Source: Ramlibacter cellulosilyticus
GTDB taxonomy: Bacteria > Pseudomonadota > Gammaproteobacteria > Burkholderiales > Burkholderiaceae_C
DNA: 64,000 nucleotides
Reading direction: 5' to 3'
Assembly: GCF_014297465.1 (NCBI RefSeq)
Contig: NZ_JACORT010000002.1
Location: 372,001 to 436,000, forward strand
In this document: positions 18,680 through 61,390 of the stretch, piece by piece
Numbering within the stretch: position 1 is the stretch's first letter
Layout of the letters: every line of letters begins with the position of its first letter
Translations under genes and position numbers: made by a program
Notes under the pieces: model-generated
The model's database searches: none
Told to the model about the DNA's origin: nothing
What the model saw: only the letters and a program-made list of their open reading frames with translations

Positions 18680-18686
18680 GCAGGAA

Positions 18687-18778
18687 GAACGCAGAGGTCG
18701 CAGAGGGGTCGCAGAGGTCGCAGAGAAGTCAGGGGAAAGCTCTGCGACCTCTGCGTTCCCTCTGCGACCTCTGCGTTC
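18687..18778. repeat. CGCAGAGG palindromic intergenic repeat, copy 1
   Basis: Two arms of 39 bp (18687-18725 and 18740-18778) built from the unit CGCAGAGGTCGCAGAG and its complement form a long near-perfect hairpin with a loop of about 14 bases. It fills the space between the convergent mltA and lrp genes, and its right arm runs into the lrp stop codon (18777-18779). Copies at 39775 and 47406 share the GAACGCAGAGGTCGCA core. It may act as a bidirectional terminator or mRNA-end stabiliser; its origin as a non-autonomous mobile repeat is an inference. Confidence 0.85.
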
Positions 18779-19256
18779 AAGTCGGGTTCAGGTGGGCCAG
18801 CGGCCAGCTACTGGACGCCTTCACCTCCCCCAGCGAAAAGCTCGTGTGGATGTCCTTCACGTTCGGCAGGTTGATCAGGACCTTGCGGGCGAACTGGGAG
18901 AAGGTGTCCAGGTCGCGCGAGACCACCTGCAGCTCGAAGGTGCCGGCGCCGCTGATGTAGTGGCAGGACACGATCTCCGGGATCTTGCGGATCGCGTCTT
19001 CCATCTCGCGCGTGCGCTCGCCGGTGTTGCGGTCCGCGTCCAGACGCACGAAGGCCAGCACGCCCAGGCCGATCTTGTGGCGGTCGATTTCGGCGTGGTA
19101 GCCCTTGATGAAGCCGGCCTCCTCCAGCGCCCGCACGCGGCGCCAGCAGGGCGCCGCCGACAGGCCCACGCGCTGGGCCAGCTCGGTGTTGGTCAGCCGT
19201 GCATCCGCCTGCAACTCGGTAAGGATTTGGATGTCATACCTGTCAAGTGTTTCCAT
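18777..19256 (-). CDS. Lrp/AsnC-family transcriptional regulator
   Basis: A 159-residue regulator: N-terminal winged helix (LDRYDIQILTELQADARLTN, VGLSAAPCWRRVRALEEAGF) and a C-terminal RAM/ligand-binding domain (IVSCHYISGAGTFELQVVSRDL). It is divergent from the indolepyruvate oxidoreductase gene across 128 bp, the usual arrangement for an Lrp-type activator that senses an amino acid and controls the neighbouring catabolic gene. That regulatory link is inferred from position. Its stop codon overlaps the palindromic repeat downstream. Confidence 0.93.
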   Translation of the reverse strand: METLDRYDIQILTELQADARLTNTELAQRVGLSAAPCWRRVRALEEAGFIKGYHAEIDRHKIGLGVLAFVRLDADRNTGERTREMEDAIRKIPEIVSCHYISGAGTFELQVVSRDLDTFSQFARKVLINLPNVKDIHTSFSLGEVKASSSWPLAHLNPT

Positions 19257-19384
19257 TCGGCGCGCTTTTGAGAAAGAACCTTTCCCATCTTAGGGTTTGG
19301 ACGGCATCAAAAGCAATAACGTATCGCCGCATCGGGCATACACTGTGCAGCGGCCCCTGGTCGCGTCGTGGAGACAAACGCAAG

Positions 19385-22300
19385 ATGAACGCACCCCTGC
19401 CCGAACACATCCGCAAGGCGCTCGAGACCGTCACGCTGGACGACAAGTACTCGCTCGACGTCGGCCGCGCCTTCATGAGCGGCATCCAGGCGCTGGTGAA
19501 GCTGCCCATGCTGCAGCGGCAGCGCGATGCCATGCAGGGCAGGAACACCGCCGGCTTCATCAGCGGCTACCGCGGCTCGCCCCTCGGCGGCTACGACCAG
19601 GCGCTGTGGAAGGCGAAGAAGTACCTGCAGGCGCAGAACATCGTCTTCCAGCCCGGCGTGAACGAGGAACTCGCGGCGACGGCCTTGTGGGGCACGCAGC
19701 AGATGGGTTTCGCGCCCCCCGGCAGCAACAGGTTCGACGGCGTCTTCGGCATCTGGTACGGCAAGGGTCCGGGCGTGGACCGCTGCTCCGACGTGTTCAA
19801 GCACGCCAACATGGCCGGCACCACGCCCTGGGGCGGCGTCATCGCGGTGGCCGGCGACGACCACGTCGCCAAGAGCTCCACCGCCGCCCACCAGAGCGAC
19901 CACATCTTCAAGGCCTGCGGGCTGCCGGTGTTCTTCCCGGCGACGGTGCAGGAGATCCTGGACATGGGGCTGCACGCCTTCGCCATGAGCCGCTTCTCCG
20001 GCGTGTGGGCGGGGATGAAGACGATCCAGGAGATCGTCGAATCCAGTTCGACCGCGGTGATCGACCCCGAGCGGGTGCAGATCCAGCTGCCCACGGACTT
20101 CCAGATGCCGCCCGGCGGCGTGCACATCCGCTGGCCCGACACGGCGCTGGAGCAGGAAGCGCGCCTGTACGACTTCAAGTGGTACGCCGCGCTCGCCTAC
20201 ATCCGCGCCAACCGGCTGAACTACAACGTCGTGGAGACGCCGAACGACCGCTTCGGCATCATCGCCAGCGGCAAGGCGTACAACGACACGCGCCAGGCGC
20301 TGCTGGACCTCGGCCTCGACGACGACACCTGCCGCCGCCTCGGCATCCGCCTGCACAAGGTGGGCGTCGTGTGGCCGCTGGAGGCGCAGGGCACGCGCGA
20401 GTTCGCGCAGGGCCTGCGCGAGATCCTGGTGGTGGAAGAGAAGCGCCAGGTCATCGAATACCAGCTGAAGGAAGAGCTGTACAACTGGCGCCCCGACGTG
20501 CGCCCGAACGTGCTGGGCAAGTTCGACGAAGGCGAAGGCGACTACTCGGGCGGGGAATGGTCCATGCCGAACCCGACGGCGCACACGCTCCTGCGCGCCA
20601 ACGCGGACCTGTCGCCGGCGCTGATCGCTCGCGCCATCGCGCGCCGGCTGCGCAAGCTGGGGCTGGATGCCGACGTGCAGGCGCGCATCGATGCGCAGCT
20701 CGCCATCCTGGAGGCGAAGGAACGCGCCATGCAGGTGGTGGAGGTCAAGGGCGACCGCATGCCCTGGTTCTGCTCCGGCTGCCCGCACAACACGTCCACG
20801 GTCGTGCCCGAAGGCTCGCGCGCCATGGCCGGCATCGGCTGCCACTTCATGGCGACGTGGATGGACCGGGCCACCATCGGCTTCACGCAGATGGGCGGCG
20901 AGGGCGTGCCGTGGGTCGGCCAGCAGCCCTTCTCCAACGAGAAGCACGTGTTCGCCAACCTCGGCGACGGCACCTACTTCCACAGCGGCCTGCTGGCGAT
21001 CCGCCAGTCCATCGCCGCCGGCGTCAACATCACCTACAAGGTCCTCTACAACGACGCGGTCGCGATGACCGGCGGCCAGCCCGTCGGCGAGCGCCCCGAA
21101 GGGCACACGCCGCTGCAGATCGCCCACAGCCTGGTCGCCGAAGGCGTGCGCAAGCTGGTGGTCGTGACCGACCAGCCGGAAAAGTACGACGGCGCGAAGC
21201 TGCCCGAGGGCGTGACGGTCCACCACCGCGACGAGCTCGATCGCATCCAGCGCGAGTTCCGCGAACTGGAAGGCACCACGGCGATCCTGTACGACCAGAC
21301 CTGCGCCACCGAGAAGCGGCGCCGCCGCAAGCGCGGCACGATGGTCGACCCGGCCGTGCGGGTCATGATCAACGACCTGGTCTGCGAAGGCTGCGGCGAC
21401 TGCAGCGTCAAGTCCAACTGCCTGTCCGTGGAGCCGCTGGAGACCGAGTTCGGCCGCAAGCGCACCATCAACCAGAGCACCTGCAACAAGGACACGAGCT
21501 GCCTCAAGGGCTTCTGCCCCAGCTTCGTGACCGTGGAAGGCGGGCAGCTGAAGAAGAAGGCGAAAGGCGCGGAGAAGGCGCCTTCGCCCTACGAAGGCCC
21601 CGAGCTCCCCGAGCCGCTGCTGCCCTCGACGGCGGATGCGTACGGCATCGTCGTGGCCGGCGTCGGCGGCACCGGCGTGATCACCATCGGCCAGTTGCTC
21701 GGCATGGCCGCCCACATCGAAGGCAAGGGCATCGTCACCCAGGACGCCGCCGGCCTCGCGCAGAAGGGCGGCGCGACCTGGAGCCACGTGCTGGTGGCGG
21801 ACCGGCAGGACGACATCCGCACGACGCGCGTGAGCATGGCGGCGGCGGACCTCGTGATCGGCTGCGATCCCATCGTCACCGGCGGCAAGGAAACCGTGCT
21901 GCGCATGCGCCCGGGCCGCACCCGCGTCGCCCTCAACGGCCACAGCACGCCGACCGCGGCGTTCGTGAAGAACCCCGCCTGGGAGAATCCGGAAGACGCG
22001 TGCGCGGTGGAGATCGGCAAGTCCGTCGGCGCCGACAACCTGGCCGCGTTCAACGCGGAAGGCCTCGCCGCCAGGGTGATGGGCGACAGCATCTACACCA
22101 ATCCCATCATGCTGGGCTACGCCTGGCAGAAGGGCTGGGTGCCCCTGGCGCGCGAATCCCTGCTGCGCGCCATCGAGCTCAATGGCGTGGCGGTGGAGAA
22201 CAACAAGGCCGCCTTCGAATGGGGCCGCCGCGCCGCCCACGAGCCGGAGCGCATCGCCGGCCTGCTCGCGCCCAGCGCGCAGGTGATCGAATTCAAGAAG

Positions 22301-22954
22301 CGCGAGACGCTGGACAGCGTGGTCGCGCGGCGCGTCGAGTTCCTCACCGCCTACCAGGACGCCGCGTACGCCGGGCGCTACAAGGACCTGGTCGACCGCG
22401 TGCGCGTCGCCGAACTGCCTTTCGGCAAGGCCACGCTCACCGAGACCGTGGCCAAGGGCCTGTTCCGCCTGATGGCGTACAAGGACGAATACGAGGTCGC
22501 TCGCCTGCATGCCGAGACCGGCTTCCGCGAGAAGATCGCGGAACAGTTCGAGGGCGACTTCAAGGTCCACTACCACCTCGCGCCCCCGCTGATCGCGAAG
22601 CACAACGACAAGGGCGAGCTGGTGAAGCGCAAGTTCGGCCCCTGGACCTACCAGCTGTTCCGCGTGCTGGCGAAGTTCAAGGGCCTGCGCGGCACGGCGC
22701 TGGACATCTTCGGCAGGACCGAGGAGCGCCGCACCGAGCGCGCCCTGATCGCCGAATACCGGCAGACGGTGGAGGAACTGGTGGCGGGCCTGCAGCCGGG
22801 CAACCACGCCCTGGCGGTGGAGATCGCCGGCCTGCCCGAGAAGATCCGCGGCTACGGCCACGTCAAGGCCCGCAACCTGGCCGCGACGCGGCCGGAATGG
22901 GACCGCCTGATGCAGCAGTGGCGCGCCCAGGGCGCGGAGCGCCGCGCCGCCTGA
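19385..22954 (+). CDS. Indolepyruvate ferredoxin oxidoreductase, fused alpha/beta (IorAB-like)
   Basis: A 1189-residue single-chain 2-oxoacid oxidoreductase that oxidatively decarboxylates aryl (and perhaps branched) 2-oxoacids to acyl-CoA, using TPP and Fe-S clusters. The N-terminal IorA-like part includes the TPP-binding core. A cysteine cluster follows (LVCEGCGDCSVKSNC, CNKDTSCLKGFC). The gamma/IorB-like domain starts GVGGTGVITIGQLLGMAAH. Archaeal enzymes split these subunits; the long fused form is common in aerobic proteobacteria. ATG 19385 follows a GGAGA ribosome site. It is divergent from lrp, so amino-acid-dependent control is likely. Confidence 0.93.
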   Translation: MNAPLPEHIRKALETVTLDDKYSLDVGRAFMSGIQALVKLPMLQRQRDAMQGRNTAGFISGYRGSPLGGYDQALWKAKKYLQAQNIVFQPGVNEELAATALWGTQQMGFAPPGSNRFDGVFGIWYGKGPGVDRCSDVFKHANMAGTTPWGGVIAVAGDDHVAKSSTAAHQSDHIFKACGLPVFFPATVQEILDMGLHAFAMSRFSGVWAGMKTIQEIVESSSTAVIDPERVQIQLPTDFQMPPGGVHIRWPDTALEQEARLYDFKWYAALAYIRANRLNYNVVETPNDRFGIIASGKAYNDTRQALLDLGLDDDTCRRLGIRLHKVGVVWPLEAQGTREFAQGLREILVVEEKRQVIEYQLKEELYNWRPDVRPNVLGKFDEGEGDYSGGEWSMPNPTAHTLLRANADLSPALIARAIARRLRKLGLDADVQARIDAQLAILEAKERAMQVVEVKGDRMPWFCSGCPHNTSTVVPEGSRAMAGIGCHFMATWMDRATIGFTQMGGEGVPWVGQQPFSNEKHVFANLGDGTYFHSGLLAIRQSIAAGVNITYKVLYNDAVAMTGGQPVGERPEGHTPLQIAHSLVAEGVRKLVVVTDQPEKYDGAKLPEGVTVHHRDELDRIQREFRELEGTTAILYDQTCATEKRRRRKRGTMVDPAVRVMINDLVCEGCGDCSVKSNCLSVEPLETEFGRKRTINQSTCNKDTSCLKGFCPSFVTVEGGQLKKKAKGAEKAPSPYEGPELPEPLLPSTADAYGIVVAGVGGTGVITIGQLLGMAAHIEGKGIVTQDAAGLAQKGGATWSHVLVADRQDDIRTTRVSMAAADLVIGCDPIVTGGKETVLRMRPGRTRVALNGHSTPTAAFVKNPAWENPEDACAVEIGKSVGADNLAAFNAEGLAARVMGDSIYTNPIMLGYAWQKGWVPLARESLLRAIELNGVAVENNKAAFEWGRRAAHEPERIAGLLAPSAQVIEFKKRETLDSVVARRVEFLTAYQDAAYAGRYKDLVDRVRVAELPFGKATLTETVAKGLFRLMAYKDEYEVARLHAETGFREKIAEQFEGDFKVHYHLAPPLIAKHNDKGELVKRKFGPWTYQLFRVLAKFKGLRGTALDIFGRTEERRTERALIAEYRQTVEELVAGLQPGNHALAVEIAGLPEKIRGYGHVKARNLAATRPEWDRLMQQWRAQGAERRAA

Positions 22955-22988
22955 GCCCGGCCGGCGGGCCCGCGTGCGGGGGCCCGCA

Positions 22989-22994
22989 TACAAT
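22989..22994 (+). promoter_or_regulatory. Candidate -10 box upstream of yajC
   Basis: TACAAT lies 83 bases before the yajC GTG. A GC-rich inverted repeat (about 22964-22986, GGGCCCGC...) immediately precedes it and could end the oxidoreductase transcript. The -35 region is not convincing. The rest of the 122-bp gap 22955-23076 shows nothing else. Confidence 0.35.
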
Positions 22995-23076
22995 CATCGC
23001 TCCTCCCGCGGCAGGCGTCCGGCGACCCGCCGGCTCCGCCGCGGTCGTCCCCTGGTTTTGGACCCCTGGAGCCACC

Positions 23077-23409
23077 GTGTTCATTTCTTCCGCCTACGCC
23101 CAGACGGCGCCGGCCGCCGCAGCCGGCGGCGACATGCAGTCCTCCTTCATGAGCCTGCTGCCGCTGGTGCTGATGTTCGTCGTCCTGTACTTCGTGATGA
23201 TCCGCCCGCAGATGAAGCGGCAGAAGGAACATCGCTCGATGATCGACGCGCTGGCCAAGGGCGACGAGGTCGCCACCGCCGGCGGCCTTGTCGGCAAGGT
23301 CACCAAGCTGGGCGACACTTTCCTCGGCGTGGAGATCGCCCCCGGCGTGGAAGTCCAGGTCCAGCGCACCGCCGTCGTGCAGGTGCTGCCCAAGGGCTCC
23401 GTCAAGTAA
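23077..23409 (+). CDS. yajC: Sec translocon accessory subunit YajC
   Basis: A 110-residue protein with short N-terminal FISSAYAQTAP, one TM helix (SLLPLVLMFVVLYFVMI), then RPQMKRQKEH and a small cytoplasmic domain with GDEVATAGGLVGKV. It joins SecD and SecF in the ancillary complex that helps SecYEG export. The start is GTG 23077, with GGAG 6 bases before; the family N-terminus supports it. secD begins 3 bp after its stop. Confidence 0.96.
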   Translation: MFISSAYAQTAPAAAAGGDMQSSFMSLLPLVLMFVVLYFVMIRPQMKRQKEHRSMIDALAKGDEVATAGGLVGKVTKLGDTFLGVEIAPGVEVQVQRTAVVQVLPKGSVK

Positions 23410-23412
23410 GCC

Positions 23413-26307: not shown

Positions 26308-28947
26308 ATGTCGTCCACGCTCACTCCCGCCTCGGCGCCCCTGGCGCGGCAGGCGCGTGAGCGCTTCGTGGCGCACCTGCAAGGCCTGCTGCCCGAGCTG
26401 GGCGAGGCGGTGCGCACCACGCTGGGCGACATGATGAACACCGCGCAGAGCAGCCGCGAGATGCAGCAGCGGCGCGATGCGCTGGTGGAGTTCGAGCAGA
26501 ACGGCGCCCGCTGGATCGACGCGGTGGGCCGCGCCTGGCGCCGCGCGGTCGTGCCGCCCACCGCCACGTCGCGCGTGCGCATGGAACTGGCCAGCCTGGA
26601 GCTGATCGGCGACGACGTGGTGGAGAACAAGATCCTGTCCTCCCGCCTCGCGATGGCGGTGCAGGAAAAGGCGGTCTGGGAGCTGAACGACCTCAAGCTG
26701 CGCATCACGCACCTGGAAGGCGGCGAGGAACTCGCCACCGAGGACGTGCTGCGGCCCGAGGCGCTCGCCCAGATGATGGTGGAGCAGTGGTCGGCCACCA
26801 AGCTGCCGCGCGAGACCTGGGTCGCGGTGAAGGACGTCATCCAGCAGATGCTCGTGCCCCGGGCGCTCGAGGGCTACCAGCAGGCGAACGAATTCCTGGT
26901 CGACAGCGGCGTGCTGCCGCACATCGACCTGCGCGCGCGCGTGCGCCGGCCGGCGGCCGGTCCCGCGCCGACGGCGCGTCCGGAAGCGCGCGCGGGCGGT
27001 GGGGGTAGTGGTACCGGCGGCGGCGGCGGTGGATCGGGCGGAGGCCAGGGCGGCGGCGGAGCCGGCGGCTTCGGCGGCGGTGGCTCCGGCGGAAGCGGCA
27101 CCGGGACCGGCGGTGGCGGCGGTGGCGGCATGGGCGCCGGCAGCGGCGGCGGCGGTGGTGGAAATGGATCCGGCGTGGCCGGTCCGGGCGGCGCCGGTGG
27201 CGCGGGCTCGGGCGGCGGCGGCGGTGGCGGTGGCGGCATCGCAGGCGCGCCGGGTGTGGGCGGCGGCGGTGGCGGCGGCGGCGGCTTCGGCGCCAGCAGC
27301 TTCGGTCCCGCCACGGCGCAAGGCGGTGCCGGCGGTGGTGGGGGAGGCGGCGGCGCCGGTGGCGGCGCGATGTCCGACTCGTTCTTCTCGCCCGCGGCCG
27401 TCATGAACGGCGGCGACGGCACGGCCTCCACCCCGCTCGCGCGCGCGAAGCAGCGCGCGACCGGCGTGCTCGGACAGATCAAGCGCCTGCTGCGCGACAA
27501 GGTCGGCGTGCCCGAAGGCGGCACGCCCACGCCGCCCTCCGCATCGCTGGTGGCCGCGGTGACGCACCACGCGACGCAGGTGCAGACGCAGGTGCAGACC
27601 CGCGTCAACGAGGCCATGACCGTCGGCGACATCGTCATCTTCGACGACGACGCCGTGGAGCAGGTGGCGCTGGACCTGCGCCACCGCTCGCAGGAACTGA
27701 AGCAGAAGGCGGCCAGCTCCAACGAGAAGGCCACCATCGAGATCGTGGCGCTCATGTTCCAGGCCATCCTGGCCGAGGAACGCATCCCGCCGGCCGTGCG
27801 CGTGTGGTTCGCGCGGCTGCAGATGCCGGTGCTGCGCGTGGCCCTGCAGGAACCCGAATTCTTCGGCTCGCTGGAGCACCCGGCGCGCCAGCTGATCGAC
27901 CGCATGGGCTCCTGCGTGCTCGGCTTCGATTCCACCGCCATCTCCGGCAGCGCGCTGGAGACGGAGATCCGCCGCGTGGTGCAGGTGATCGAGCAGTACC
28001 CCGAGACCGGCCGGCGCGTGTTCCAGCTGGTCTACGACGAGTTCCAGCGCTTCCTCTCGCGCTTCCTCACCGAGAAGGGCCCGACGCAGAAGCTGGTGAG
28101 CGTCGCGCAGCAGGTGGAGCAGAAGGAAACGATGGCGATCCAGTACACCATCGAGCTGCGCAAGATGCTCGCGGACGTGCCGGTGCGCGACGAGATCCGC
28201 GAGTTCCTGTTCAAGGTCTGGGCCGAGGTGCTGGCCGTGGCCGGCGTGAAGAACGGCCCGCAGCACGAGGAGACGCTGGCGCTGAAGAAGTCCGCCAGCG
28301 ACCTGGTGTGGGCCGCCAGCGCCAAGCCGAACCGCCACGACCGCGCCAAGGTGATCCAGGACCTGCCGGACCTCTTGGCCCGCCTGCGCCGCGGCATGAC
28401 CCTGCTGGGGCTGGAGCCCTCGGAGCAGGAGAACCACATCAAGGTGATCGGCGACACCCTCGCGGACGCCTTCCTGTCCAAGACCGAGGCCATCCCGCAC
28501 GCGCGCATCGAGGAGATGACGCGGCGCCTGGCCAACCTCGAGGACTTCGTCTCCGACGACGACGCGGGCGAGCTGCCGCTGGACCAGGAAAGCATCGAGA
28601 TGATGCTGGGCATCGACGCCTCGATGATCGAGGTGATCAGCACCGGCGGCTCGCAGCCCAATGCCGCCAACACCGCGTGGGCCAACGAGCTGCAGCTCGG
28701 CAACTGGTTCACGCTGGACCACAACGGCCGCGTGTCGCAGGTGCAGTACGCCTGGTGCAGCGACCGCCGCCAGCTGCACCTGTTCGCGGCGGGCGACGGC
28801 TACTGCTTCCTGGTGCCGCTGCGCCGGCTGGCGTCCTACCTGCAGGCGGGGCTGCTCGTGCCGACCGAGGAAGAAGCGCTCACGGTGCGCGCCACGCGGG
28901 ATGCGCTGGCGAAGCTGGATGCGAATCCGGAGCGGTTGTTGTCGTGA
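26308..28947 (+). CDS. DUF1631 family protein with glycine-rich linker
   Basis: An 879-residue cytoplasmic protein of the DUF1631 family (function unknown; common in beta- and gamma-proteobacteria). The N-terminal conserved part (RDALVEFEQNGARWIDAVG) runs to about residue 225. Residues about 229-354 are a low-complexity Gly-rich stretch with Ser/Thr/Ala/Phe interruptions. The large C-terminal helical part (about 360-879) then ends with the LGNWFTLDHNGRVSQVQYAW segment. The ATG has a GAGGA ribosome site 8 bases upstream. It lies 13 bp after secF. The glycine tract is coded by GGC/GGT/GGA/GGG mixtures, so it is not a simple triplet expansion. Confidence 0.88.
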   Translation: MSSTLTPASAPLARQARERFVAHLQGLLPELGEAVRTTLGDMMNTAQSSREMQQRRDALVEFEQNGARWIDAVGRAWRRAVVPPTATSRVRMELASLELIGDDVVENKILSSRLAMAVQEKAVWELNDLKLRITHLEGGEELATEDVLRPEALAQMMVEQWSATKLPRETWVAVKDVIQQMLVPRALEGYQQANEFLVDSGVLPHIDLRARVRRPAAGPAPTARPEARAGGGGSGTGGGGGGSGGGQGGGGAGGFGGGGSGGSGTGTGGGGGGGMGAGSGGGGGGNGSGVAGPGGAGGAGSGGGGGGGGGIAGAPGVGGGGGGGGGFGASSFGPATAQGGAGGGGGGGGAGGGAMSDSFFSPAAVMNGGDGTASTPLARAKQRATGVLGQIKRLLRDKVGVPEGGTPTPPSASLVAAVTHHATQVQTQVQTRVNEAMTVGDIVIFDDDAVEQVALDLRHRSQELKQKAASSNEKATIEIVALMFQAILAEERIPPAVRVWFARLQMPVLRVALQEPEFFGSLEHPARQLIDRMGSCVLGFDSTAISGSALETEIRRVVQVIEQYPETGRRVFQLVYDEFQRFLSRFLTEKGPTQKLVSVAQQVEQKETMAIQYTIELRKMLADVPVRDEIREFLFKVWAEVLAVAGVKNGPQHEETLALKKSASDLVWAASAKPNRHDRAKVIQDLPDLLARLRRGMTLLGLEPSEQENHIKVIGDTLADAFLSKTEAIPHARIEEMTRRLANLEDFVSDDDAGELPLDQESIEMMLGIDASMIEVISTGGSQPNAANTAWANELQLGNWFTLDHNGRVSQVQYAWCSDRRQLHLFAAGDGYCFLVPLRRLASYLQAGLLVPTEEEALTVRATRDALAKLDANPERLLS

Positions 28948-28956: not shown

Positions 28957-29040
28957 GCTGGGGTGCGCTTCGCGCAACCCAGCCTACAGGGGAACGGGCC
29001 TCGGGGTTTTCGTAGGCTGGGTTGCCGAAGGCACCCCAGC
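28957..29040. repeat. GTAGGCTGGGTTG palindromic repeat, copy 1
   Basis: An 84-bp inverted repeat: left arm from GCTGGGGTGC to CCCAGCCTAC (28957-28987), right arm GTAGGCTGGGTTG to GCACCCCAGC (29012-29040). Small hairpins sit inside each arm (GCGCTTCGCGC; GCCGAAGGC). It lies between the convergent DUF1631 and smg genes. A second copy lies at 61301-61381. The layout is typical of REP-like elements; no RAYT transposase gene is in the window. Confidence 0.85.
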
Positions 29041-36501: not shown

Positions 36502-37131
36502 ATGCAGTACGAGGATCCGAGCTTTTTGCTCGATGCGCTGTCGCAGCGCATGTTGCGCCACCTGCCCGCCAGCGCCTGGCGGAAGGTGTTCCTGAAGCCA
36601 GTGGACGAGGTCATGCACTTCACGACCGTCCACGGCACCTTCCTGGCGGCCGCGGCGCCCGGCCCGGCCTGGACCGGGGCGGCGCAGCGCGACCTGGAGT
36701 TCCTCGCCCGCTCGCACGGCGGCGAGATCGACCCGTGCCCGCACGACGCGGCGCTGGTCAGCTTCGACGACCCGCACCACGCGCTCGCGATGGCGATCGA
36801 GCTGCAGCAGGCCGTGGGCGAGGTGCGCTGGCAGGTCGGCATCGCGACCGGCGAATGCACGCTCGCGACGCTGCAGATGGAGGGCACCTCGCTGCCGGTG
36901 CTGGTGGGCGGCGCGGTGGACCGCGTCGAGACCCTCACCCGTCACGCCACCGCGGGCAGCATCCGCCTCGCGCCCGAGACCTTCGAGCTGCTGCACGACG
37001 CGGTGGTGCGGATCGCGGGTTGTATGGTGATGACGGAATACGACGGCGACGAGCCGGGCGTCACCTCGCTCACGCTCGCGCCCCGCTCGAATGCCTTCCT
37101 GAGCACCTTCGCGGGGCTGGGCCTCACGTGA
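36502..37131 (+). CDS. Degenerate class III nucleotidyl-cyclase-like protein
   Basis: A 209-residue soluble protein. Residues about 40-190 have the order of a cyclase homology domain: HFTTVHGTFLAAAA, HGGEIDPCPHDAALVSFDDP, ALAMAIELQQAV, VRWQVGIATGECTLATLQ, VLVGGAVDRVETLTRHATAG and IRLAPETFELLHD. These mirror G-D-(A/G)-x-A-x-F, R-x-G-x-x-x-G and N-x-A-x-R-L in real cyclases. The metal-binding Asp pair and transition-state Asn/Arg are not recognisable (VDRVETL replaces the V-N-x-A-A-R-L type), so catalysis is doubtful. A purine-rich AAGGAGTGGGAG precedes the ATG. Its 3' end overlaps the convergent desaturase by 8 bp. Confidence 0.72.
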   Translation: MQYEDPSFLLDALSQRMLRHLPASAWRKVFLKPVDEVMHFTTVHGTFLAAAAPGPAWTGAAQRDLEFLARSHGGEIDPCPHDAALVSFDDPHHALAMAIELQQAVGEVRWQVGIATGECTLATLQMEGTSLPVLVGGAVDRVETLTRHATAGSIRLAPETFELLHDAVVRIAGCMVMTEYDGDEPGVTSLTLAPRSNAFLSTFAGLGLT

Positions 37132-39774: not shown

Positions 39775-39873
39775 GAACGCAGAGGTCGCAGAGGTTTCGC
39801 AGAGGACGCAGAGAAGGCAATCCTTCTGGTTTTCCTCTGCGACCTCCGCGTCATCTCTGCGCCCTCTGCGTTC
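39775..39873. repeat. CGCAGAGG palindromic intergenic repeat, copy 2
   Basis: Left arm 39775-39813 (GAACGCAGAGGTCGCAGAGG, then TTTCGCAGAGGACGCAGAGA) and right arm 39834-39873 (CCTCTGCGACCTCCGCGT ... CTCTGCGTTC) form an imperfect hairpin just after the pyk stop. It is the same family as 18687 and 47406, but the arms have diverged (GAC, TTTC and CCGCG variants). It is the only copy lying between codirectional genes (pyk to fba). Confidence 0.85.
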
Positions 39874-39881
39874 GGCTGTCC

Positions 39882-39922
39882 GTTCCCGTTCCCGTTCCCG
39901 CTCCCGTTCCCGCTCCCGTTCC
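39882..39922. repeat. Hexanucleotide tandem repeat (GTTCCC/GCTCCC)
   Basis: Nearly seven 6-bp units: GTTCCC three times, GCTCCC, GTTCCC, GCTCCC and a partial GTTCC. It lies between the palindromic repeat and the fba promoter, about 25 bp before the TAGAAT box. Confidence 0.85.
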
Positions 39923-39947
39923 AGCCCCTCTCCCCAGCCTCAGCCGG

Positions 39948-42543: not shown

Positions 42544-42713
42544 CGGTGGGGTTCGCTGGCGCTCACCGTCCGCGGCTTCGCCGCGCCACCCTACATGGAA
42601 CCCTGTAGGGTGGCGGCGCGAGAGCGCCGGCAGGTGAGCGCGAGCGTTCGAGTGCCGCGGAGGCGGCACGTAGCCCGAAGTGAAGGCGAAGCCGAGCCTC
42701 GGACACCCCACCG
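42544..42713. repeat. 170-bp palindromic element (GTAGGGTGG type)
   Basis: Nested inverted repeats. Outer ends are CGGTGGGGT (42544-42552) and ACCCCACCG (42705-42713). The central hairpin is GCCACCCTACA / TGTAGGGTGGC (42585-42595 / 42604-42614) with an 8-base loop. Additional half-matching segments (GCTCACC / GGTGAGC) lie between. No open frame shows protein character. The structure suggests a non-autonomous REP/MITE-like insertion between two convergent genes. Confidence 0.75.
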
Positions 42714-47405: not shown

Positions 47406-47488
47406 GAACGCAGAGGTCGCAAAGGTCACGCAGAGGTCGCAGAGAACAGCCAGGGCCTCGGAGGGCTTTCTCTGCGACCTCTGCGTTC
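47406..47488. repeat. CGCAGAGG palindromic intergenic repeat, copy 3
   Basis: A full left arm (47406-47445; GAACGCAGAGGTCGCAAAGG, then TCACGCAGAGGTCGCAGAGA) faces a half-length right arm (47469-47488; CTCTGCGACCTCTGCGTTC) across a 23-base loop. It lies between the SGNH-like terminator and the convergent dacB stop. The remaining 65 bp to dacB hold nothing recognisable. Confidence 0.85.
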
Positions 47489-47553
47489 TGAACTCCTTGA
47501 TCTTCCCGGAATGCAGTGAAGAACCTCTCGCTGCGCGAAGCCGGCCTGCGGTG

Positions 47554-50875: not shown

Positions 50876-50876
50876 G

Positions 50877-55000: not shown

Positions 55001-55858
55001 CTGTACGGCACGAGCTTCCTGGGCATGGCGGCCGTCGAGAACGGCGGCCGCTTCCGCGCGTTCGGCAGCCGCGTGGGCGCCACGCTCACGCGCAACAGCG
55101 GGCTCGTGGAAATCAATGCCGGCAGCACGCTCGATGCGGCGCAGTTCACCGACAACAGCGGCATGCTGGTCGTCAACGGCACGCTCAACCTGGGCAGCAG
55201 CGCCGGCGCACCTCCGCCGGTGCCCACGCCTTCGCCGCCGCCGTTGCCGCCGCTGGGCGTCGCCGCCGCCGCACTGGGCAGCGGTGCGGTGTTCACCAAC
55301 CAGGCGTCCGGCACCATCGCCGGCAGCGGCACGCTGAACGTCGACGGCGGCACGGGCACGGTGGACAACTTCGGCACCCTCGCACCCGGCGGTGCCGGCA
55401 CCGTGGGCACGCTGAACGTGAACGGCAACCTCACCATGCAGTCGGGGTCCGTCTATGCCGCGGACCTGAAGGACACCACGGTGCACGACCAGGTGGTGGT
55501 CGCGGGTGCGGCGCGCACCGGCGGCACCGTGCAGGTGAACCTGCTGTCCGGCGCGAGCTACGCCGCGGGCGACAGCGTCGCCGTGCTGAAGTCCAACGGC
55601 CTCGACGCCACAAGCCTGCCGGCGGTCAACAAGCCGGAGTTCACGGCGAAGGCCGCGGGCAACGATCTCCTGCTGGTCGCCGCGGGGACGGTCACGCCGC
55701 CGCCTCCGCCGACGGGCGCCGTGGAACAGCAGGCGCAGCAGCAGGCGAACAACCAGGTGACGACCTTCCTCACGCTGTTCGAGCAGTTGCAGCGCCAGGA
55801 GCCCAGGCGCATCGGCAAGGACGACATCGTCGTCACCGACACCGCCTGCACGCGCTAG
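52070..55858 (+). CDS. Two-partner secretion exoprotein (filamentous hemagglutinin-like TpsA)
   Basis: A 1262-residue secreted protein. It has an extended signal region ending AHAQ (about residue 48). The TPS domain has NLLVTTTNGAGHRSVLNWQ, FHVPAGSRTWF, INRVTGG and VLVNPSGIAIGANAMVDTAG (the NPNG-I-type motif). A beta-helix of Gly/Val/Ala-rich repeats follows (GGDGGDGGDVTV, GKGGRGGKVTL, GGAGGTLTV). A proline-rich spacer (PPPVPTPSPPPLPPLG) lies near residue 1046. A last beta-helical piece and a Gln-rich C-terminal tail end the protein. No haemagglutinin repeats, VENN motif or toxin-like C-terminus is seen, so a CDI toxin is unlikely. Its TpsB transporter is not adjacent. The stop overlaps the glcD-like stop at CTAG. 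Confidence 0.88.
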   Translation: MSRVPSRPARRVASTPAVAGFRQSALAVAAAFALHAGAHAQSVPAGAVHGTAAYQRDGANLLVTTTNGAGHRSVLNWQSFHVPAGSRTWFQQPDAASTSINRVTGGVRSDIFGSLGSNGKLVLVNPSGIAIGANAMVDTAGFTASAMGLSEADAIAGRLLFQGGAGELRVGEGAQVLARGGDVVLVGSRVQVERNAVVQASGATILAAGEKVEVTGRGLEGIRLEVNAGNEAVNLGTLRGDAVAIFAGTLKHSGLVQAQAATAEGGKVVLKATADALVDGTVRASGKRGGSIDVLGERVGLLAGSTVDASGLFGGGSIRIGGDYQGRNAAVPNAKAVFVDASAKIRADASLAGNGGRVIVWSDEVTRMRGAISARGGNLAGNGGFVEVSSKGHLAYTGFTDLSAPRGRVGDLLLDPQDIVIFHTGDTAYTHDAIALANNSGGTDFTYTGGPSYMADGIINSQLRTSNLTITTSHDSSRYASPISPDTGTGGQITINADVDINWTTPNRLEFLADKGIAMLGGWISGDNAGASLVMTAKNGSIVLNPSATVQVGNGITFSATGDIQFGSLRAGYVSTGSGSGRSAGPVVLNAGGNVSGNAIYAYGDYLAGGDGGDGGDVTVTAGGSIAVGTIAAQGGNAYERPVFTMPPVPPGKGGRGGKVTLKANGGGVTVSDITAYGGDSAGGSLPSGAAGAAGNIEVVAKGDVAIDYMKVSGALGLTGSAAGTVSVTADGSFTFDEIQAVGGRSYDPVASGKGGTVLVDVKGDIVMTPRAGGDAINADGGYGERGAGGQGGSITLKAGGTVRALPVISCDCASPPTTGGVAWVSASGGQGNGSPTGGTDGGAGGTIRVETGAPLVIDSSMILAAGGGEGGDVYSGGTGLAGKGGAGGTLTVQSKGTVTLRDALLSAGGGGGGVGADGVTRAADGALGTFTASGTAVEVVNSFLLDGHWINNSVVNLRDAAIVAGSGIFRNASDVNLYGTSFLGMAAVENGGRFRAFGSRVGATLTRNSGLVEINAGSTLDAAQFTDNSGMLVVNGTLNLGSSAGAPPPVPTPSPPPLPPLGVAAAALGSGAVFTNQASGTIAGSGTLNVDGGTGTVDNFGTLAPGGAGTVGTLNVNGNLTMQSGSVYAADLKDTTVHDQVVVAGAARTGGTVQVNLLSGASYAAGDSVAVLKSNGLDATSLPAVNKPEFTAKAAGNDLLLVAAGTVTPPPPPTGAVEQQAQQQANNQVTTFLTLFEQLQRQEPRRIGKDDIVVTDTACTR

Positions 55859-57348: not shown

Positions 57349-57417
57349 GCCGCCATCATCGCGCAGGCGGCGGGCGGGGTGGCTGAAGTTTTTTTACGCG
57401 GGCGATGAAACGCGGCC

Positions 57418-58287
57418 TCAGGCGAGGCTCTTGCGCAGCCACTCGGCGAAGGCGGCGCACTCCCAGCGGTCCATGGTCCCCGTGCGCCAGCACAGGTAGT
57501 GTGCGTGCGGGCTGGGCACGTTGCGGTCCGACAGGCGTTCCAGGCTGCCGTTCTCCAGCCAGGGCTGCCCCAGCTTCAGCCGCACCAGCGCGACGCCGAG
57601 CCCTTGCGCCGCGGCATCGCACATCAGGCCGATGTCGTTGAAGGCGGAGCCTTCCGCCGGCTCCGGCGCGTCGATGCCGTGCGCGAGGAACCAGGTGCGC
57701 CAGGGTTCCAGCGGGCTCTTGATCAACTTGGCGCCCAGCAGCTCCTCGGCGCTGTCGAACGGCCCGTGCTCGCGCAGGAAGGCCGGCGAGGCGAGGGGCG
57801 TGACTTCGTCGGTCAGCAGGCACAGGTGTTCGACGTCGGCATAGCGACCCGTGCCGAAGCGGATGGTGAGGTCCGCGTCCTCGGCGACGACGTCCAGCAG
57901 CGGTATCGAGACCTGCAGCGTGAGGTCCACCTCGGGGTAGGCCTCGATGAAGCCGCGCAGCCGCGGCATGAGCAGGGAGCGCGCGAAGGTGGGCGTGACC
58001 GCGACGCGCAGCTTGCGCTTGCCGCCGCCGGCTTCGCGCCCGGGGAAGCGCCCCAGCACCGCGAGGCCTTCGCGCACGTGGGCCAGGTACTCGCTGCCTT
58101 CGGTGGTGAGGGAGAAATCGGCGCGCCCGAACAGCTTGGTGCCCAGGATCTGTTCGAGCTGCCGCACGCGGTGGCTCACCGCGCTCGGCGTGACGCAGAG
58201 TTCGTCCGCCGCCTGGCTCACGGAGCGCAACCGCGCCAGGGCCTCGAAGGTGACGAGGCACTGGATCGGCGGGATGCGCGGGTTCAT
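57418..58287 (-). CDS. LysR-family regulator, GcvA-like
   Basis: A 289-residue LysR protein: N-terminal winged HTH (LARLRSVSQAADELCVTPSAVSHRVRQLE with LGTKLFGR) and a C-terminal periplasmic-binding-like effector domain (LRVAVTPTFARSLLMPRL, LTIRFGTGRYAD). The opening IPPIQCLVTFEALARL is typical of the GcvA group. It begins 4 bp after purU on the same strand, so it is probably cotranscribed with it, and may control one-carbon or glycine metabolism; that link is an inference. Confidence 0.92.
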   Translation of the reverse strand: MNPRIPPIQCLVTFEALARLRSVSQAADELCVTPSAVSHRVRQLEQILGTKLFGRADFSLTTEGSEYLAHVREGLAVLGRFPGREAGGGKRKLRVAVTPTFARSLLMPRLRGFIEAYPEVDLTLQVSIPLLDVVAEDADLTIRFGTGRYADVEHLCLLTDEVTPLASPAFLREHGPFDSAEELLGAKLIKSPLEPWRTWFLAHGIDAPEPAEGSAFNDIGLMCDAAAQGLGVALVRLKLGQPWLENGSLERLSDRNVPSPHAHYLCWRTGTMDRWECAAFAEWLRKSLA

Positions 58288-58291
58288 GGGG

Positions 58292-59140
58292 TCACTTGAA
58301 GATCACCGTCTTGTGCCCGTTCAGCAGCACGCGGTGCTCGCTGTGCCACTTCACCGCGCGGGCCAGCACCATGCTTTCCGTGTCGCGGCCGGTCGCGGTG
58401 AGCGCTTCCACCGTGTAGCTGTGGTCCACGCGCGCGACGTCCTGCTCGATGATCGGGCCTTCGTCGAGGTCCGCCGTCACGTAGTGCGCGGTCGCGCCGA
58501 TCAGCTTCACCCCGCGGTCGTGCGCCTGGTAGTAGGGCTTGGCGCCCTTGAAGCTGGGAAGGAAGCTGTGGTGGATGTTGATCGCGCGGCCCGAGAGCTT
58601 GCGGCACAGGTCGTCGGAGAGGACCTGCATGTAGCGGGCCAGCACCACCAGCTCGGCGCCTTCCGCCTCGATCACCTCGTACTGGCGCGCCTCGGCCTGG
58701 GGCTTGGTCGCGGCGGTCACGGGGATGTGGTGGAAGGGGACGTTGTAGCTCGCGGCGAGCTGGTAGAACTCGCGGTGGTTGGAGACGATCGCGCGGATGT
58801 CCAGCGGCAGCAGGCCGCTCTTCCAGCGGAACAGCAGGTCGTTGAGGCAGTGGCCTTCCTTGCTGACGAAGATCACCGTCTTCATCGGCTGCGCCGACGC
58901 GTGCAGCTTCCAGTCCATCTGGAAACCCTCGGCGAACATCTTCAGCTGCAGCCGCAGGTCGTCGGCCGTGAGCTGCCCGCAGGCGAAGCGCACCCGCATG
59001 AAGAACAGGCCGGTGTCGTGGTCGTTGTACTGCGCGGCCTCCTCGATGTTGCCTCCGCGCTCCAGGAGGAAGCCGGAGACGGCGTGGACGATCCCGGGCC
59101 GGTCCGGGCACGAAAGGGTGAGGATGTAGGCTTCGGACAT
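58292..59140 (-). CDS. purU: Formyltetrahydrofolate deformylase
   Basis: A 282-residue enzyme releasing formate and THF from 10-formyl-THF. An ACT domain (YILTLSCPDRPGIVHAVSGF) senses amino acids; the formyltransferase-fold domain has NHREFYQLA, VVLARYMQVLSDDL, INIHHSFLPSFKGAKPY and GATAHYVTADLDEGPIIEQD (catalytic Asn/His/Asp). Together with fmt and the pur genes it ties into one-carbon balance. Confidence 0.97.
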   Translation of the reverse strand: MSEAYILTLSCPDRPGIVHAVSGFLLERGGNIEEAAQYNDHDTGLFFMRVRFACGQLTADDLRLQLKMFAEGFQMDWKLHASAQPMKTVIFVSKEGHCLNDLLFRWKSGLLPLDIRAIVSNHREFYQLAASYNVPFHHIPVTAATKPQAEARQYEVIEAEGAELVVLARYMQVLSDDLCRKLSGRAINIHHSFLPSFKGAKPYYQAHDRGVKLIGATAHYVTADLDEGPIIEQDVARVDHSYTVEALTATGRDTESMVLARAVKWHSEHRVLLNGHKTVIFK

Positions 59141-59166
59141 ATGTTGCGATTGTCGCAGCAGCGCGA

Positions 59167-59196
59167 TTGACGCTGCGCCGTGGGGCTTGGCATCAT
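59167..59196 (+). promoter_or_regulatory. Candidate promoter of the DUF4197 gene
   Basis: TTGACG (59167-59172), an 18-base spacer and CATCAT (59191-59196) precede the ATG at 59227 by 30 bases, within the 86-bp divergent gap with purU. Confidence 0.4.
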
Positions 59197-59226
59197 GGCT
59201 CCACAGGAAAAAGGTTGGGGGACTTC

Positions 59227-59919
59227 ATGCTCAGACGCCATTTCGTCGTCGCGCCGGTGCTGGCCGCGCCCGTGCTGCTGCTCCAGGCCCGTGCGCAGGG
59301 GCTGGCGGACATCAGTGACTTCGACGCGGGCAAGGGGCTGCGCACGGCCCTGGAGAAGGGCGCCGTCGCCGCCGTGCAGCTGCTCGGGCGACCGGACGGC
59401 TTCCTCGGCAATCCGCAGGTGCGCATCCCGCTGCCGCGCGCGATCCAGGACGTCTCGCGGCTGCTGTCCGCCTTCGGCATGCGCAAGCAGCTGGAGGAGC
59501 TGGAAGTCTCCATGAACCGCGCGGCCGAAACCGCCGTGCCCATGGCGAAGAACCTGCTGGTCAACGCCGTGAAGAACATCAGCGTGTCCGACGCGAAGCG
59601 CATCCTCTCCGGCGGGGACACCTCTGTCACGGAGTTCTTCGCGGACAAGACGCGCCAGCCGCTCACGGGCACCTTCCTGCCGGTGGTGCACCAGGCCACC
59701 GCGAAGGTGGGCGTGGTCGAGAAATACGAGCGCATCTCGCAGAAAGCGCAGGGCGTCGGCCTCTACCGGCCCGAGGACCCGACGGTGGACCACTACGTCA
59801 CCCGCAAGGCGCTCGACGGCCTCTACTTCATGATCGGTGAGGAGGAGAAGAAGATCCGCCGCGACCCGGTCGGCACGGGCAGCGCGCTGCTGGCGAAGGT
59901 CTTCGGCGGCCTGCGGTAG
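59227..59919 (+). CDS. DUF4197 family exported protein
   Basis: 230 residues. The N-terminal signal (HFVVAPVLAAPVLLLQARAQG) suggests export; the body is helical with KGLRTALEKGAVAAVQLLG, VRIPLPRAIQDVSRLLSAFG, MNRAAETAVPMAKNLLVNA and ALDGLYFMIGEEEKKIRRDP, which are DUF4197 hallmarks. The function of the family is unknown. Start M at 59227 begins the signal peptide; a longer upstream frame is not needed. Confidence 0.88.
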   Translation: MLRRHFVVAPVLAAPVLLLQARAQGLADISDFDAGKGLRTALEKGAVAAVQLLGRPDGFLGNPQVRIPLPRAIQDVSRLLSAFGMRKQLEELEVSMNRAAETAVPMAKNLLVNAVKNISVSDAKRILSGGDTSVTEFFADKTRQPLTGTFLPVVHQATAKVGVVEKYERISQKAQGVGLYRPEDPTVDHYVTRKALDGLYFMIGEEEKKIRRDPVGTGSALLAKVFGGLR

Positions 59920-59956
59920 CGGGTGCAAAATGGGGGCTCGGTCCCAAGGAGTCCCC

Positions 59957-61288
59957 ATGGCCTACAACGACTTCAACATGGACAGCCACTGGCTGCCCTT
60001 CACGCCCAACCGCCACTTCCGCAAGGAACCCCGCGTGTTCGTCGCGGCGGACGGCATGCAGTTCACCACGCACGACGGCCGCCAGGTCATCGACGGCATC
60101 TCCAGCCTCTGGTGCGTCGGGGCGGGGCATAACCGCAAGCCCATCAACGAGGCGATCAAGAAGCAGCTGGACACGCTGGACTACGCGACGGCCTTCCAGG
60201 CCAGCAACGACCAGGCCTTCCTCGCCGCGGAGAAGATCGCCGCGATGGCGCCCGGTGACCTGAACAAGGTGCTGTTCTGCAACTCGGGCTCCGAGGCCGC
60301 GGACACTTCGCTGAAGGTGGCGCTCGCCTACCACCGCGCGCGCGGCGAAGGCCACCGCAACGTCTTCATCGGCCGCGAGAAGGGCTACCACGGCGTCGGC
60401 TTCGGCGGCATGAGCGTGGGCGGCATCCCGGCCAACCGCAAGGTGTACGGCACGGCGCTGCTGCCGCGCGTGGACCACCTGCGCTTCATCCACGACCCGG
60501 CCAACGCCTGGATCCACAACCAGGAACCCGAGTCGAAGGAGGACTTCCTCCTCGAGCTCGAGAACCGCATCCTCCCGCTGCACGACCCGAGCAACGTGGC
60601 GGCGATCATCGTCGAGCCTGTCGCCGGCTCCGCGGGCTGGTACCTGCCGCCCAAGGGCTACCTGAAGCGCCTGCGCGAGATCTGCGACAAGCACGGCATC
60701 CTGCTGATCTTCGACGAGGTGATCACGGGCTTCGGCCGCATGGGCACGAACTTCGGCGCGGACTTCTACGGCGTGGTGCCGGACATGCTGAACTTCGCCA
60801 AGTGCGTGACCAACGGCGTGATTCCGCTCGGCGGCGTGATCTGCCGCGACAAGATCTACGACCAGATGATGAAGACGGACGCGCCGGAACACATCATCGA
60901 GTTCTTCCACGGCTACACCTACTCGGGCCACCCGGTCGCTTGCGCTGCGGCGGTGGCCACGCTGGACCTGTACCAGAAGGAGGGCCTGTTCCCGCGCGCG
61001 GCGGAAATGGGCAAGGTGCTGGGCGACGCCTTCCATTCCACGCTGAAGGGGCTGCCGAACGTCGTGGGCATCCGCAGCCTGGGGCTCGCGGCGGCGGTGG
61101 AACTCGCGCCGATCGCCGGCACGCCGGGCAAGCGCGCCTACGACATCTTCATCGACTGCTTCAAGAAGGGCGCGCTCGTGCGGCCGGCGGGTGACGTGGT
61201 GGTGATCGCGCCGCCGTACATCGTGGAGAAGAGCCATATCGACCAGCTGGTGAACACGCTGGCGGATTCGATCCGGCGCAACGCCTGA
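59957..61288 (+). CDS. Class III (omega) aminotransferase, beta-alanine-pyruvate type
   Basis: A 443-residue PLP enzyme. It shows HWLPFTPNRHFRKEPRV at the N-terminus, the phosphate loop NSGSEAADTSLK, IIVEPVAGSAGWYLPP, the PLP-binding IFDEVITGFGR (Asp253) and Schiff-base Lys282 in NFAKCVTNG. The start and length match omega-amino acid:pyruvate aminotransferases that act on beta-alanine or related omega-amines. AAGGAG precedes the ATG. The substrate cannot be fixed by sequence alone. Confidence 0.93.
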   Translation: MAYNDFNMDSHWLPFTPNRHFRKEPRVFVAADGMQFTTHDGRQVIDGISSLWCVGAGHNRKPINEAIKKQLDTLDYATAFQASNDQAFLAAEKIAAMAPGDLNKVLFCNSGSEAADTSLKVALAYHRARGEGHRNVFIGREKGYHGVGFGGMSVGGIPANRKVYGTALLPRVDHLRFIHDPANAWIHNQEPESKEDFLLELENRILPLHDPSNVAAIIVEPVAGSAGWYLPPKGYLKRLREICDKHGILLIFDEVITGFGRMGTNFGADFYGVVPDMLNFAKCVTNGVIPLGGVICRDKIYDQMMKTDAPEHIIEFFHGYTYSGHPVACAAAVATLDLYQKEGLFPRAAEMGKVLGDAFHSTLKGLPNVVGIRSLGLAAAVELAPIAGTPGKRAYDIFIDCFKKGALVRPAGDVVVIAPPYIVEKSHIDQLVNTLADSIRRNA

Positions 61289-61300
61289 TCGCGCAGCCGT

Positions 61301-61381
61301 GCTGGGGTCGCCTGCGGCGAACCCAGCCTACGGAGGGCGCTGGCGGCTCGTAGGCTGGGTTGCGCGACAGCGCACCCCAGC
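61301..61381. repeat. GTAGGCTGGGTTG palindromic repeat, copy 2
   Basis: An 81-bp inverted repeat: left arm GCTGGGGTCG ... CCCAGCCTACG (61301-61332) and right arm CGTAGGCTGGGTTG ... CACCCCAGC (61349-61381), with the same layout and ends as 28957-29040. It sits between the convergent aminotransferase and chaN genes and fills most of that 102-bp gap. Confidence 0.85.
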
Positions 61382-61390
61382 GTCGGGGCG

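What the first reader, a model, noticed from the sequence alone, without database searches (positions are those of the whole stretch)
18680..61390. Convergent gene pairs are systematically closed by palindromic repeats
Convergent junctions were checked one by one. mltA/lrp, DUF1631/smg, small secreted protein/cnoX, SGNH-like/dacB and aminotransferase/chaN each carry a repeat from one of the three families. AbrB-type/DUF3567 has a classic hairpin with T-run. Cyclase-like/desaturase, UDG-like/glycosyltransferase and TpsA/GlcD overlap or are 1 bp apart. Only one repeat (39775) lies between codirectional genes. This suggests the repeats act as, or are tolerated as, bidirectional transcription ends that prevent read-through antisense RNA.
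Basis: partly seen in the sequence, partly recalled or inferred. Interest (0 to 1): 0.7.

Follow-up and report, generated by a model that had tools for sequence, protein, structure and literature searches.

The report
REP hairpins behind converging genes
In this bacterium, likely a Ramlibacter, about a third of the examined gaps between genes that point at each other hold hairpin-forming repeats of known or similar kinds just behind the stop codons; the repeats likely spread as mobile DNA, are likely tolerated there, and would cap message ends rather than stop transcription, so the pattern is mostly ordinary.

Summary
The local anatomy is right: of 9 convergent junctions in the window, 5 carry repeats, 1 a terminator-like hairpin, and 3 overlap or lie 1 bp apart. 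A survey of 2.435 Mb of the same genome shows a real bias: repeats lie in 121 of 350 convergent, 111 of 1550 codirectional and 6 of 350 divergent gaps. "Systematically" is too strong: about half of the convergent pairs lie under 40 bp apart, nearly all without a repeat. Pooled over seven families, convergent occupancy is what two gene 3' ends per gap predict (four of five cut-offs). The families differ: GTAG-tagged REP families A and B favour convergent gaps; family C (GCAGAGG) is mostly codirectional (26 against 7). A, B and C lack U-tracts, so classical bidirectional terminators are unlikely. At orthologous junctions in related genomes the slot is empty, or holds a terminator, or a repeat of another family; at DUF1631/smg both protein ends stay in place. 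Best reading: REP-type repeats, likely mobile, that collect where they do least harm and likely act as 3'-end caps. The placement of REPs between convergent and codirectional genes is already in print.

The parts
18687..18778 (.). family C palindromic dimer in the mltA/lrp convergent gap; its end touches the lrp stop codon (minus strand, 18777-18779)
   Evidence: dG -84.5 kcal/mol, z -13.6
28957..29040 (.). family A (GTAG REP) inverted dimer, tags inside, in the DUF1631/smg gap
   Evidence: dG -64.4 kcal/mol, z -7.1
39775..39873 (.). family C dimer between codirectional genes (39760+ / 40020+)
42545..42595 (-). family B (GTAG REP) unit, small secreted protein/cnoX-like gap
42604..42646 (+). 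family B unit, second half of the dimer, interrupted by extra sequence up to about 42710
   Evidence: sequence printed as L283
47340..47369 (.). classic hairpin flanked by an A-run and a T-run (terminator-like in both directions), in the same gap as a family C copy
   Evidence: z -2.6, 5 of 200 shuffles fold as well
47406..47489 (.). family C element, second arm partial, GDSL lipase-like/dacB gap
61301..61331 (-). family A unit (divergent; below the HMM cut-off, read by eye)
   Evidence: sequence; fold of 61296-61386
61350..61381 (+). family A unit, aminotransferase/chaN gap
63206..63230 (-). hairpin with T-run on the minus strand only, gap 63207/63259 (just outside the given range)
   Evidence: z -1.8
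37124..37131 (.). overlap of a convergent pair, no repeat
55855..55858 (.). overlap of a convergent pair, no repeat

Best explanation
The repeats are stable palindromes lodged just behind stop codons; families A and B match the GTAG-tagged REP type in sequence and inverted pairing, likely spread by a RAYT-type transposase, likely remain where they are because insertions elsewhere are selected against, and would cap the 3' ends of messages with a hairpin rather than terminate transcription by themselves. Shown: the position bias, the family-by-family difference, the lack of U-tracts, the turnover of the slot between species, and one RAYT-like gene. Inferred: movement by that gene, the purifying selection, and the capping role (transcription would end by Rho or by polymerase collision, and 3' exonucleases would trim back to the hairpin, as reported for E. 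coli REPs). The convergent bias of all families together follows mainly from a convergent gap having two gene 3' ends and no promoter; the further excess of A and B, and the shortage of C, in convergent gaps are family traits that this reading does not explain.
For: Seven repeat families in 2.435 Mb; gaps with a repeat: convergent 121/350, codirectional 111/1550, divergent 6/350; 24 of 447 units in coding sequence, which is 92% of the DNA. A/B edges lie a median 10.5 nt from convergent stop codons (198 ends). Inverted dimers with the GTAG tag (61 A and 38 B pairs). With tags facing out the repeat often supplies the stop: 19 of 42 stops read GTAG, against 11 of 98 with tags in and 49 of 508 in convergent pairs without A/B. 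Two-end expectation for all families, residual gap of at least 80 bp: 125 expected, 121 seen. Slot turnover at four of five junctions compared. At DUF1631/smg the smg end has the same length in 20 of 20 and the DUF1631 end in 19 of 20 genomes, with gaps from 3 to 144 bp. Family A: 187 copies here, 3 to 23 in five of 58 genus relatives, none found in the other 53 (several of these assemblies are incomplete), so likely a recent spread. A Y1 transposase in 57 of 59 genus genomes, one match in 53 and two in 4; the own copy resembles REP-associated tyrosine transposase. PMC13289151 (passage): in E. coli, REPs stabilise RNA 3' ends and do not mediate termination.
Against: No RNA data. The RAYT-like protein scores 74.7 bits against an NCBIfam cut-off of 80 and none of the seven families was found within about 1.5 kb of it. 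A/B exceed the two-end expectation (98 against 64 at the 80 bp cut-off, P 6e-6; not at 150 bp, P 0.22), and A and B exclude each other in convergent gaps, which pure tolerance does not predict. Pooled occupancy falls slightly below the expectation at 150 bp (121 against 139, P 0.049). The codirectional comparison uses gap length as a stand-in for transcript boundaries. Protein ends are not fixed everywhere: at mltA/lrp and aminotransferase/chaN the lrp and chaN ends differ in length between genomes.
Confidence: 0.6

Rival explanations
1. The repeats are selected bidirectional terminators that stop read-through antisense RNA between convergent genes.
For: A/B convergent excess over the two-end expectation up to the 100 bp cut-off; A and B never in one convergent gap, 0 against 6.8 expected; at DUF1631/smg six of 20 genomes have a classic terminator and no family hit in the same slot; 140 of 165 convergent gaps of 40 bp or more have a repeat or a classic terminator.
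Against: Almost no U-tracts; half of convergent pairs lie under 40 bp apart and 181 of those 185 hold no repeat; 6 of 20 genomes have at most 28 bp at DUF1631/smg; repeats are as frequent with as without a classic terminator when all pairs are counted; C is depleted in convergent gaps.
Confidence: 0.15
2. Pure mobile DNA: the repeats do nothing; convergent gaps are simply where an insertion harms least, and family differences reflect insertion history or target choice of different transposases.
For: Pooled two-end expectation fits at four of five cut-offs; lineage-specific expansion of A; slot empty in many genomes (27 of 96 resolved junctions under 30 bp).
Against: A/B exclusion; matched arms of C inside each copy (identity 0.873 against 0.799 for arms of different copies, maximum of 60 shuffles 0.838), although gene conversion could also do this.
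Confidence: 0.3
3. DNA-level function: the repeats are binding sites (for example for gyrase, as for some E. coli REP clusters) that relieve positive supercoiling between converging polymerases.
For: A/B excess in convergent gaps; PMC3733652 cites gyrase targeting of E. coli REPs (section 17, part 1).
Against: C, E and G show the opposite bias (10 convergent against 49 codirectional gaps); no binding data; most tight convergent pairs lack any repeat.
Confidence: 0.08

Closest known systems
GTAG-tagged REP super-family (Di Nocera, De Gregorio and Rocco 2013, PMC3733652; abstract, section 15, section 17 part 1 of 2, and search passages read)
   Same: GTAG at one foot of a palindrome, inverted dimers with tags in or out, high copy, close to (<20 bp) the 3' ends of both convergent ORFs, TAG supplied as stop codon, mainly unidirectional and convergent positions
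   Different: Families A and B with these sequences in what is likely the genus Ramlibacter; B units (51 nt) are longer than the 20-40 bp given there; 'Burkholderia', 'Ramlibacter' and 'Comamonad' occur 0 times in that paper's main text
CGTC-tagged REP super-family (same paper)
   Same: All six family D copies printed begin with CGTC and D can form dimers; F (TGTCATCCCGGG...) looks related
   Different: Some D dimers here enclose a different hairpin, at times with a T-run, between the two units; the paper also describes structured spacers in some dimers (passage)
REPINs, mobilised by RAYTs (Bertels and Rainey 2011, PMC3116915; start of abstract in a search listing only, details recalled)
   Same: Inverted REP pairs as the repeated unit; a single RAYT-like gene in the genome
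   Different: The RAYT-like gene has none of these repeats beside it
Stem-loop enrichment in convergent intergenic space (Petrillo et al. 2006, authors recalled, PMC1590033; passages read)
   Same: Stable stem-loops prefer convergent over divergent gaps and the 50 bp after stop codons
   Different: Many genomes; no comparison of orthologous junctions in the passages seen
E. coli bidirectional terminators (Ju et al. 2019; seen only as a reference entry in PMC13289151, content recalled)
   Same: Ends of convergent transcripts in one zone
   Different: Those are transcript-mapped; here almost no U-tracts and no RNA data

Membership tests
GTAG REP (families A and B) | unpaired GTAG at one end of a short palindrome | tested here: met
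   HMM consensus GTAGGCTGGGTTGCGC... (A) and TGTAGGGTGGCG... (B); median unit hairpin dG -20.3 and -24.1 kcal/mol
GTAG REP (families A and B) | unit size 20-40 bp | tested here: inconclusive
   A 30 nt met; B 51 nt longer
GTAG REP (families A and B) | inverted dimers | tested here: met
   61 A and 38 B inverted pairs; A with tags in 21 and out 18 in convergent gaps, B 28 and 3
GTAG REP (families A and B) | many extragenic copies, near gene 3' ends, rare in divergent gaps | tested here: met
   A 180 and B 104 units in 2.435 Mb, 9 and 3 in coding sequence; A/B in 4 of 350 divergent gaps
REPIN/RAYT system | RAYT gene in the genome | tested here: inconclusive
   one Y1_Tnp ORF (Pfam 41 bits over cut-off 23); NCBIfam REP_Tyr_transpos 74.7 bits, under its cut-off of 80
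REPIN/RAYT system | RAYT gene flanked by its own repeats | tested here: not met
   no A-G match in the 3,297 bp of L121; so A/B are filed as GTAG REPs, not as proven REPINs
CGTC REP (family D) | CGTC tag and GC-rich stem | tested here: met
   six of six copies printed carry CGTC; 32 units in all, the rest not inspected one by one
REP super-families (family C) | GTAG or CGTC tag | tested here: not met
   the six copies printed begin GAACGC or GGACGC: C works like a REP but is not filed as one
Classical intrinsic terminator (A, B, C) | U-tract directly after the hairpin | tested here: not met
   TTTT within 12 nt of 2/180, 0/114 and 3/66 ends (elements over 250 bp left out)
Bidirectional terminator (functional) | transcript 3' ends from both strands inside the element | not testable with these tools
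   no RNA data held

The most novel reading that the evidence does not exclude
Convergent junctions in this genus are plug-in slots under selection: each lineage refills them with whatever mobile palindrome is active at the time (GTAG, CGTC or GCAGAGG type) in place of intrinsic terminators, so that mobile DNA is the main source of new transcript 3' ends, and different repeat families have divided the junction types between them (A/B convergent, C/E/G codirectional).
Probability: 0.2. Interest if true: 0.65.

Novelty: new member of a known kind. Interest (0 to 1): 0.4.

Why it matters
It gives a quantitative null for a pattern that is often read as function: much of the 'convergent enrichment' of palindromic repeats follows from a convergent gap having two gene 3' ends and no promoter. 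What is left over, namely the opposite junction preferences of repeat families in one genome, the mutual exclusion of A and B in convergent gaps, and the swap of terminators and repeats at an orthologous junction whose protein ends stay put (DUF1631/smg), is a concrete way to ask whether mobile repeats are recruited as 3'-end elements.

Tried and rejected
Exclusion of repeats and classic terminators: among convergent gaps of 40 bp or more it looks strong (odds ratio 0.18, P 1.5e-5), but choosing long gaps creates it, since gaps are long because they hold something. Over all 353 pairs 16 joint cases stand against about 13.5 expected (arithmetic), so I do not use it.

One hairpin per transcript: rejected, since units per gap are similar in convergent and codirectional gaps (A 1.96 and 1.72, B 1.74 and 1.63, from counts).

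TAG stop codons as insertion target: TAG is common in convergent ends generally (tight pairs without repeat 122 of 362; A/B pairs 62 of 198; codirectional 221 of 1558), so A/B pairs show no excess over empty convergent pairs.

Dimer arms covarying as proof of function: clear only for C; small for A (0.916 against 0.907, above the highest of 60 shuffles, 0.914); none for B, D or F.

Rfam: no match in the window at gathering thresholds. Text search for six repeat strings: 6 papers listed, none on genome repeats by title or abstract start (one, PMC7593972 on Neisseria, holds a D-like string once); the C arm string occurs in none. Ramlibacter with 'palindromic repeat': 3 papers, none on this by title. 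PMC7509114 (passages) gave nothing that I use.

Full report
What the window shows. My own codon-model gene finder (2300 ORFs, 92% coding over the fetched DNA) places nine convergent junctions in the 64 kb window. Five hold palindromic repeats, one a hairpin with a T-run (minus strand only), three overlap or lie 1 bp apart. Family checks support most of the names of the genes beside repeats: MltA, DUF1631, DUF494 (smg) and ChaN by Pfam; Lrp-like, thioredoxin-like, PBP4 (dacB) and omega-aminotransferase by NCBIfam (the Lrp and MltA models there score below their cut-offs). The SGNH name has weak support (GDSL, below cut-off) and the small secreted protein none. The gene names at the other junctions were not checked. 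The genus is likely Ramlibacter: the five best of 41 ChaN matches in genome contigs are Ramlibacter records, and the tool's 'same genus' genomes carry the same junctions.

Genome-wide test. I took 2.435 of 5.53 Mb. An all-against-all comparison of intergenic DNA gave repeat clusters, from which seven profile models were made: A GTAGGCTGGGTTGCGC-GAA-GCGCACCCCAG; B TGTAGGGTGGCG...CGAACCCCACC; C AACGCAGAGGTCGCAGAGG in long inverted arms; D (C)GTCATCCCCGCG...; E CCCACCCC...; F TGTCATCCCGGG...; G CTAGGGGCTAGGGG (consensus). Of 447 units, 224 lie in convergent, 188 in codirectional and 11 in divergent gaps, 24 in coding sequence. By gap, after dropping 13 gaps with tRNA or tmRNA: convergent 121/350, codirectional 111/1550, divergent 6/350. 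In gaps of 60-250 bp: 99/117, 86/428 and 3/214. So the bias is real. But 185 of 353 convergent pairs have under 40 bp between them; no classic terminator was found there (gaps under 15 bp were not scanned) and 4 of them hold a repeat.

Convergence or just 3' ends? A convergent gap has two gene 3' ends. Taking codirectional gaps with at least 80 bp of non-repeat DNA as stand-ins for transcript ends, 73/367 carry a repeat; two such ends predict 125 occupied convergent gaps of 350 and 121 are seen (P 0.66). Cut-offs of 40, 60 and 100 bp agree (P 0.2, 0.65, 0.51); at 150 bp there are fewer than expected (139 expected, P 0.049). The families split. A plus B: 98 seen, 64 expected at 80 bp (P 6e-6), with an excess also at 40, 60 and 100 bp but not at 150 bp (P 0.22). 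C: 7 seen, 39 expected at 80 bp (P 1.4e-10; at 150 bp 15 expected, P 0.026). C, E and G together: 10 seen, 53 expected. D and F together: 16 seen, 23 expected (P 0.19). A/B against C/E/G by convergent and codirectional gaps: 98:47 against 10:49, odds ratio 10.2, P 2.5e-11 (all).

Structure. A and B units are hairpins with GTAG at the foot, mostly in inverted pairs. When tags face outwards the repeat often supplies the stop codon: 19 of 42 stops read GTAG, against 11 of 98 with tags inside and 49 of 508 in convergent pairs without A/B. Full elements fold to median -66 (A), -91 (B) and -68 kcal/mol (C) with hardly any U-tract. C arms match each other within a copy better than between copies (0.873 against 0.799, 26 pairs); A slightly (0.916 against 0.907, 61 pairs), B not (0.834 against 0.843, 38 pairs), D and F not (6 pairs each).

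Comparison between species. For five window junctions I took 30 loci each, the own genome included (150 in all; the searches met more genomes than the 30 loci given); 96 could be resolved and 54 not, because the neighbour was not found beside the query gene or no stop was reached. Of the 96, 27 have a gap under 30 bp or an overlap, 46 a gap of 30-260 bp, and 23 a longer one. In the 46, 23 match a family model (one or more of A, B, C, D, F; 5 of these are the own genome), 4 more only a GTAG-hairpin test, 6 only a classic terminator, and 13 nothing automatic. At DUF1631/smg (20 resolved) the states are: 6 nearly empty, 4 with a repeat (A in the own genome, A/B, C, and D together with a terminator), 6 with a classic terminator only, 4 unclassified. 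At mltA/lrp, aminotransferase/chaN and the cnoX-like junction several families also alternate with short gaps; at SGNH/dacB only the own genome has a family match among 6 gaps of 30-260 bp. At DUF1631/smg the smg end keeps its length in 20 of 20 and the DUF1631 end in 19 of 20; at mltA/lrp and aminotransferase/chaN the lrp and chaN ends vary in length. Family A has 187 copies here, 3 to 23 in five of 58 genus relatives and none found in the other 53 (at most 2 mismatches), and none in 184 other genomes drawn from the class. C arms occur in 5 of those 184 others (exact pattern).

Source of the elements. One ORF with the Y1 transposase domain lies in the genome; of 59 genus genomes 53 have one match, 4 have two and 2 none. 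The own protein resembles REP-associated tyrosine transposase but scores just under the curated cut-off, and no family A-G copy was found near it. That it moves these repeats is inferred.

Mechanism. REPs of E. [quoted passage not shown] The lack of U-tracts, the distance of about 10 nt from stop codons, and the fact that half of convergent pairs do without fit a 3'-cap or neutral reading better than a terminator reading. The exclusion of A and B (0 shared convergent gaps against 6.8 expected over all 353 pairs, P 3.7e-4) hints that one element per gap is enough, and is the best evidence that they do something. Among all families in codirectional gaps no exclusion shows over all lengths (4 against 3.6 expected); in length-selected codirectional gaps there are fewer than expected (4 against 9.1 at 40 bp or more, 1 against 6.2 at 40-250 bp), but that choice of gaps biases the count.

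What is known. PMC3733652 (abstract, section 15, section 17 part 1 and passages) states that GTAG and CGTC REPs lie mainly between unidirectional and convergent ORFs, that most convergent ones sit <20 bp from both 3' ends, and that GTAG often supplies the stop codon. PMC1590033 (passages) reports the same bias for stem-loops in general. So the core of the finding is in print. I saw no report on this genus, the family split or the orthologous slot turnover in the listings of my searches, which cover only open-licence papers.

Limits. The gene calls are mine and starts are approximate; E-value cut-offs of the repeat models were set by me; 44% of the genome was examined; unit counts miss diverged copies (for example 61301-61331); the codirectional comparison rests on gap length; relatives are unnamed and some are incomplete.

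Noticed in passing
C1:596600-596708 and C1:1078112-1078236 of G000; L127, L225, L228, L240: Family D (CGTC) dimers can enclose a different hairpin, at times with a T-run, between the two units, like a terminator carried inside a repeat pair.
   Followed up: partly
39775-39873; 27 codirectional gaps in the fetched DNA: Family C copies in codirectional gaps sit a median 20 nt behind the upstream stop and 45 nt before the next start, so they may lie inside transcripts.
   Followed up: partly
G000 C31:75068-75364 (L121 1126-1833, minus strand): A single RAYT-like transposase gene; one or two Y1 matches in 57 of 59 genus genomes, none of the seven repeat families found beside the own copy.
   Followed up: partly
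fetched contigs of G000: Tight convergent pairs without repeats use TAG stops far more often (122 of 362) than codirectional genes (221 of 1558); 26 of 75 overlapping pairs have the plus-strand stop in CTAG.
   Followed up: partly
27012-27374: Glycine-rich GGC-type repeats inside the DUF1631 gene.
   Followed up: no
39880-39930: Short GTTCCC-type tandem repeat directly behind the family C copy (sequence).
   Followed up: no
C1:787523-788118 of G000: A local cluster of several C and A copies close together.
   Followed up: no
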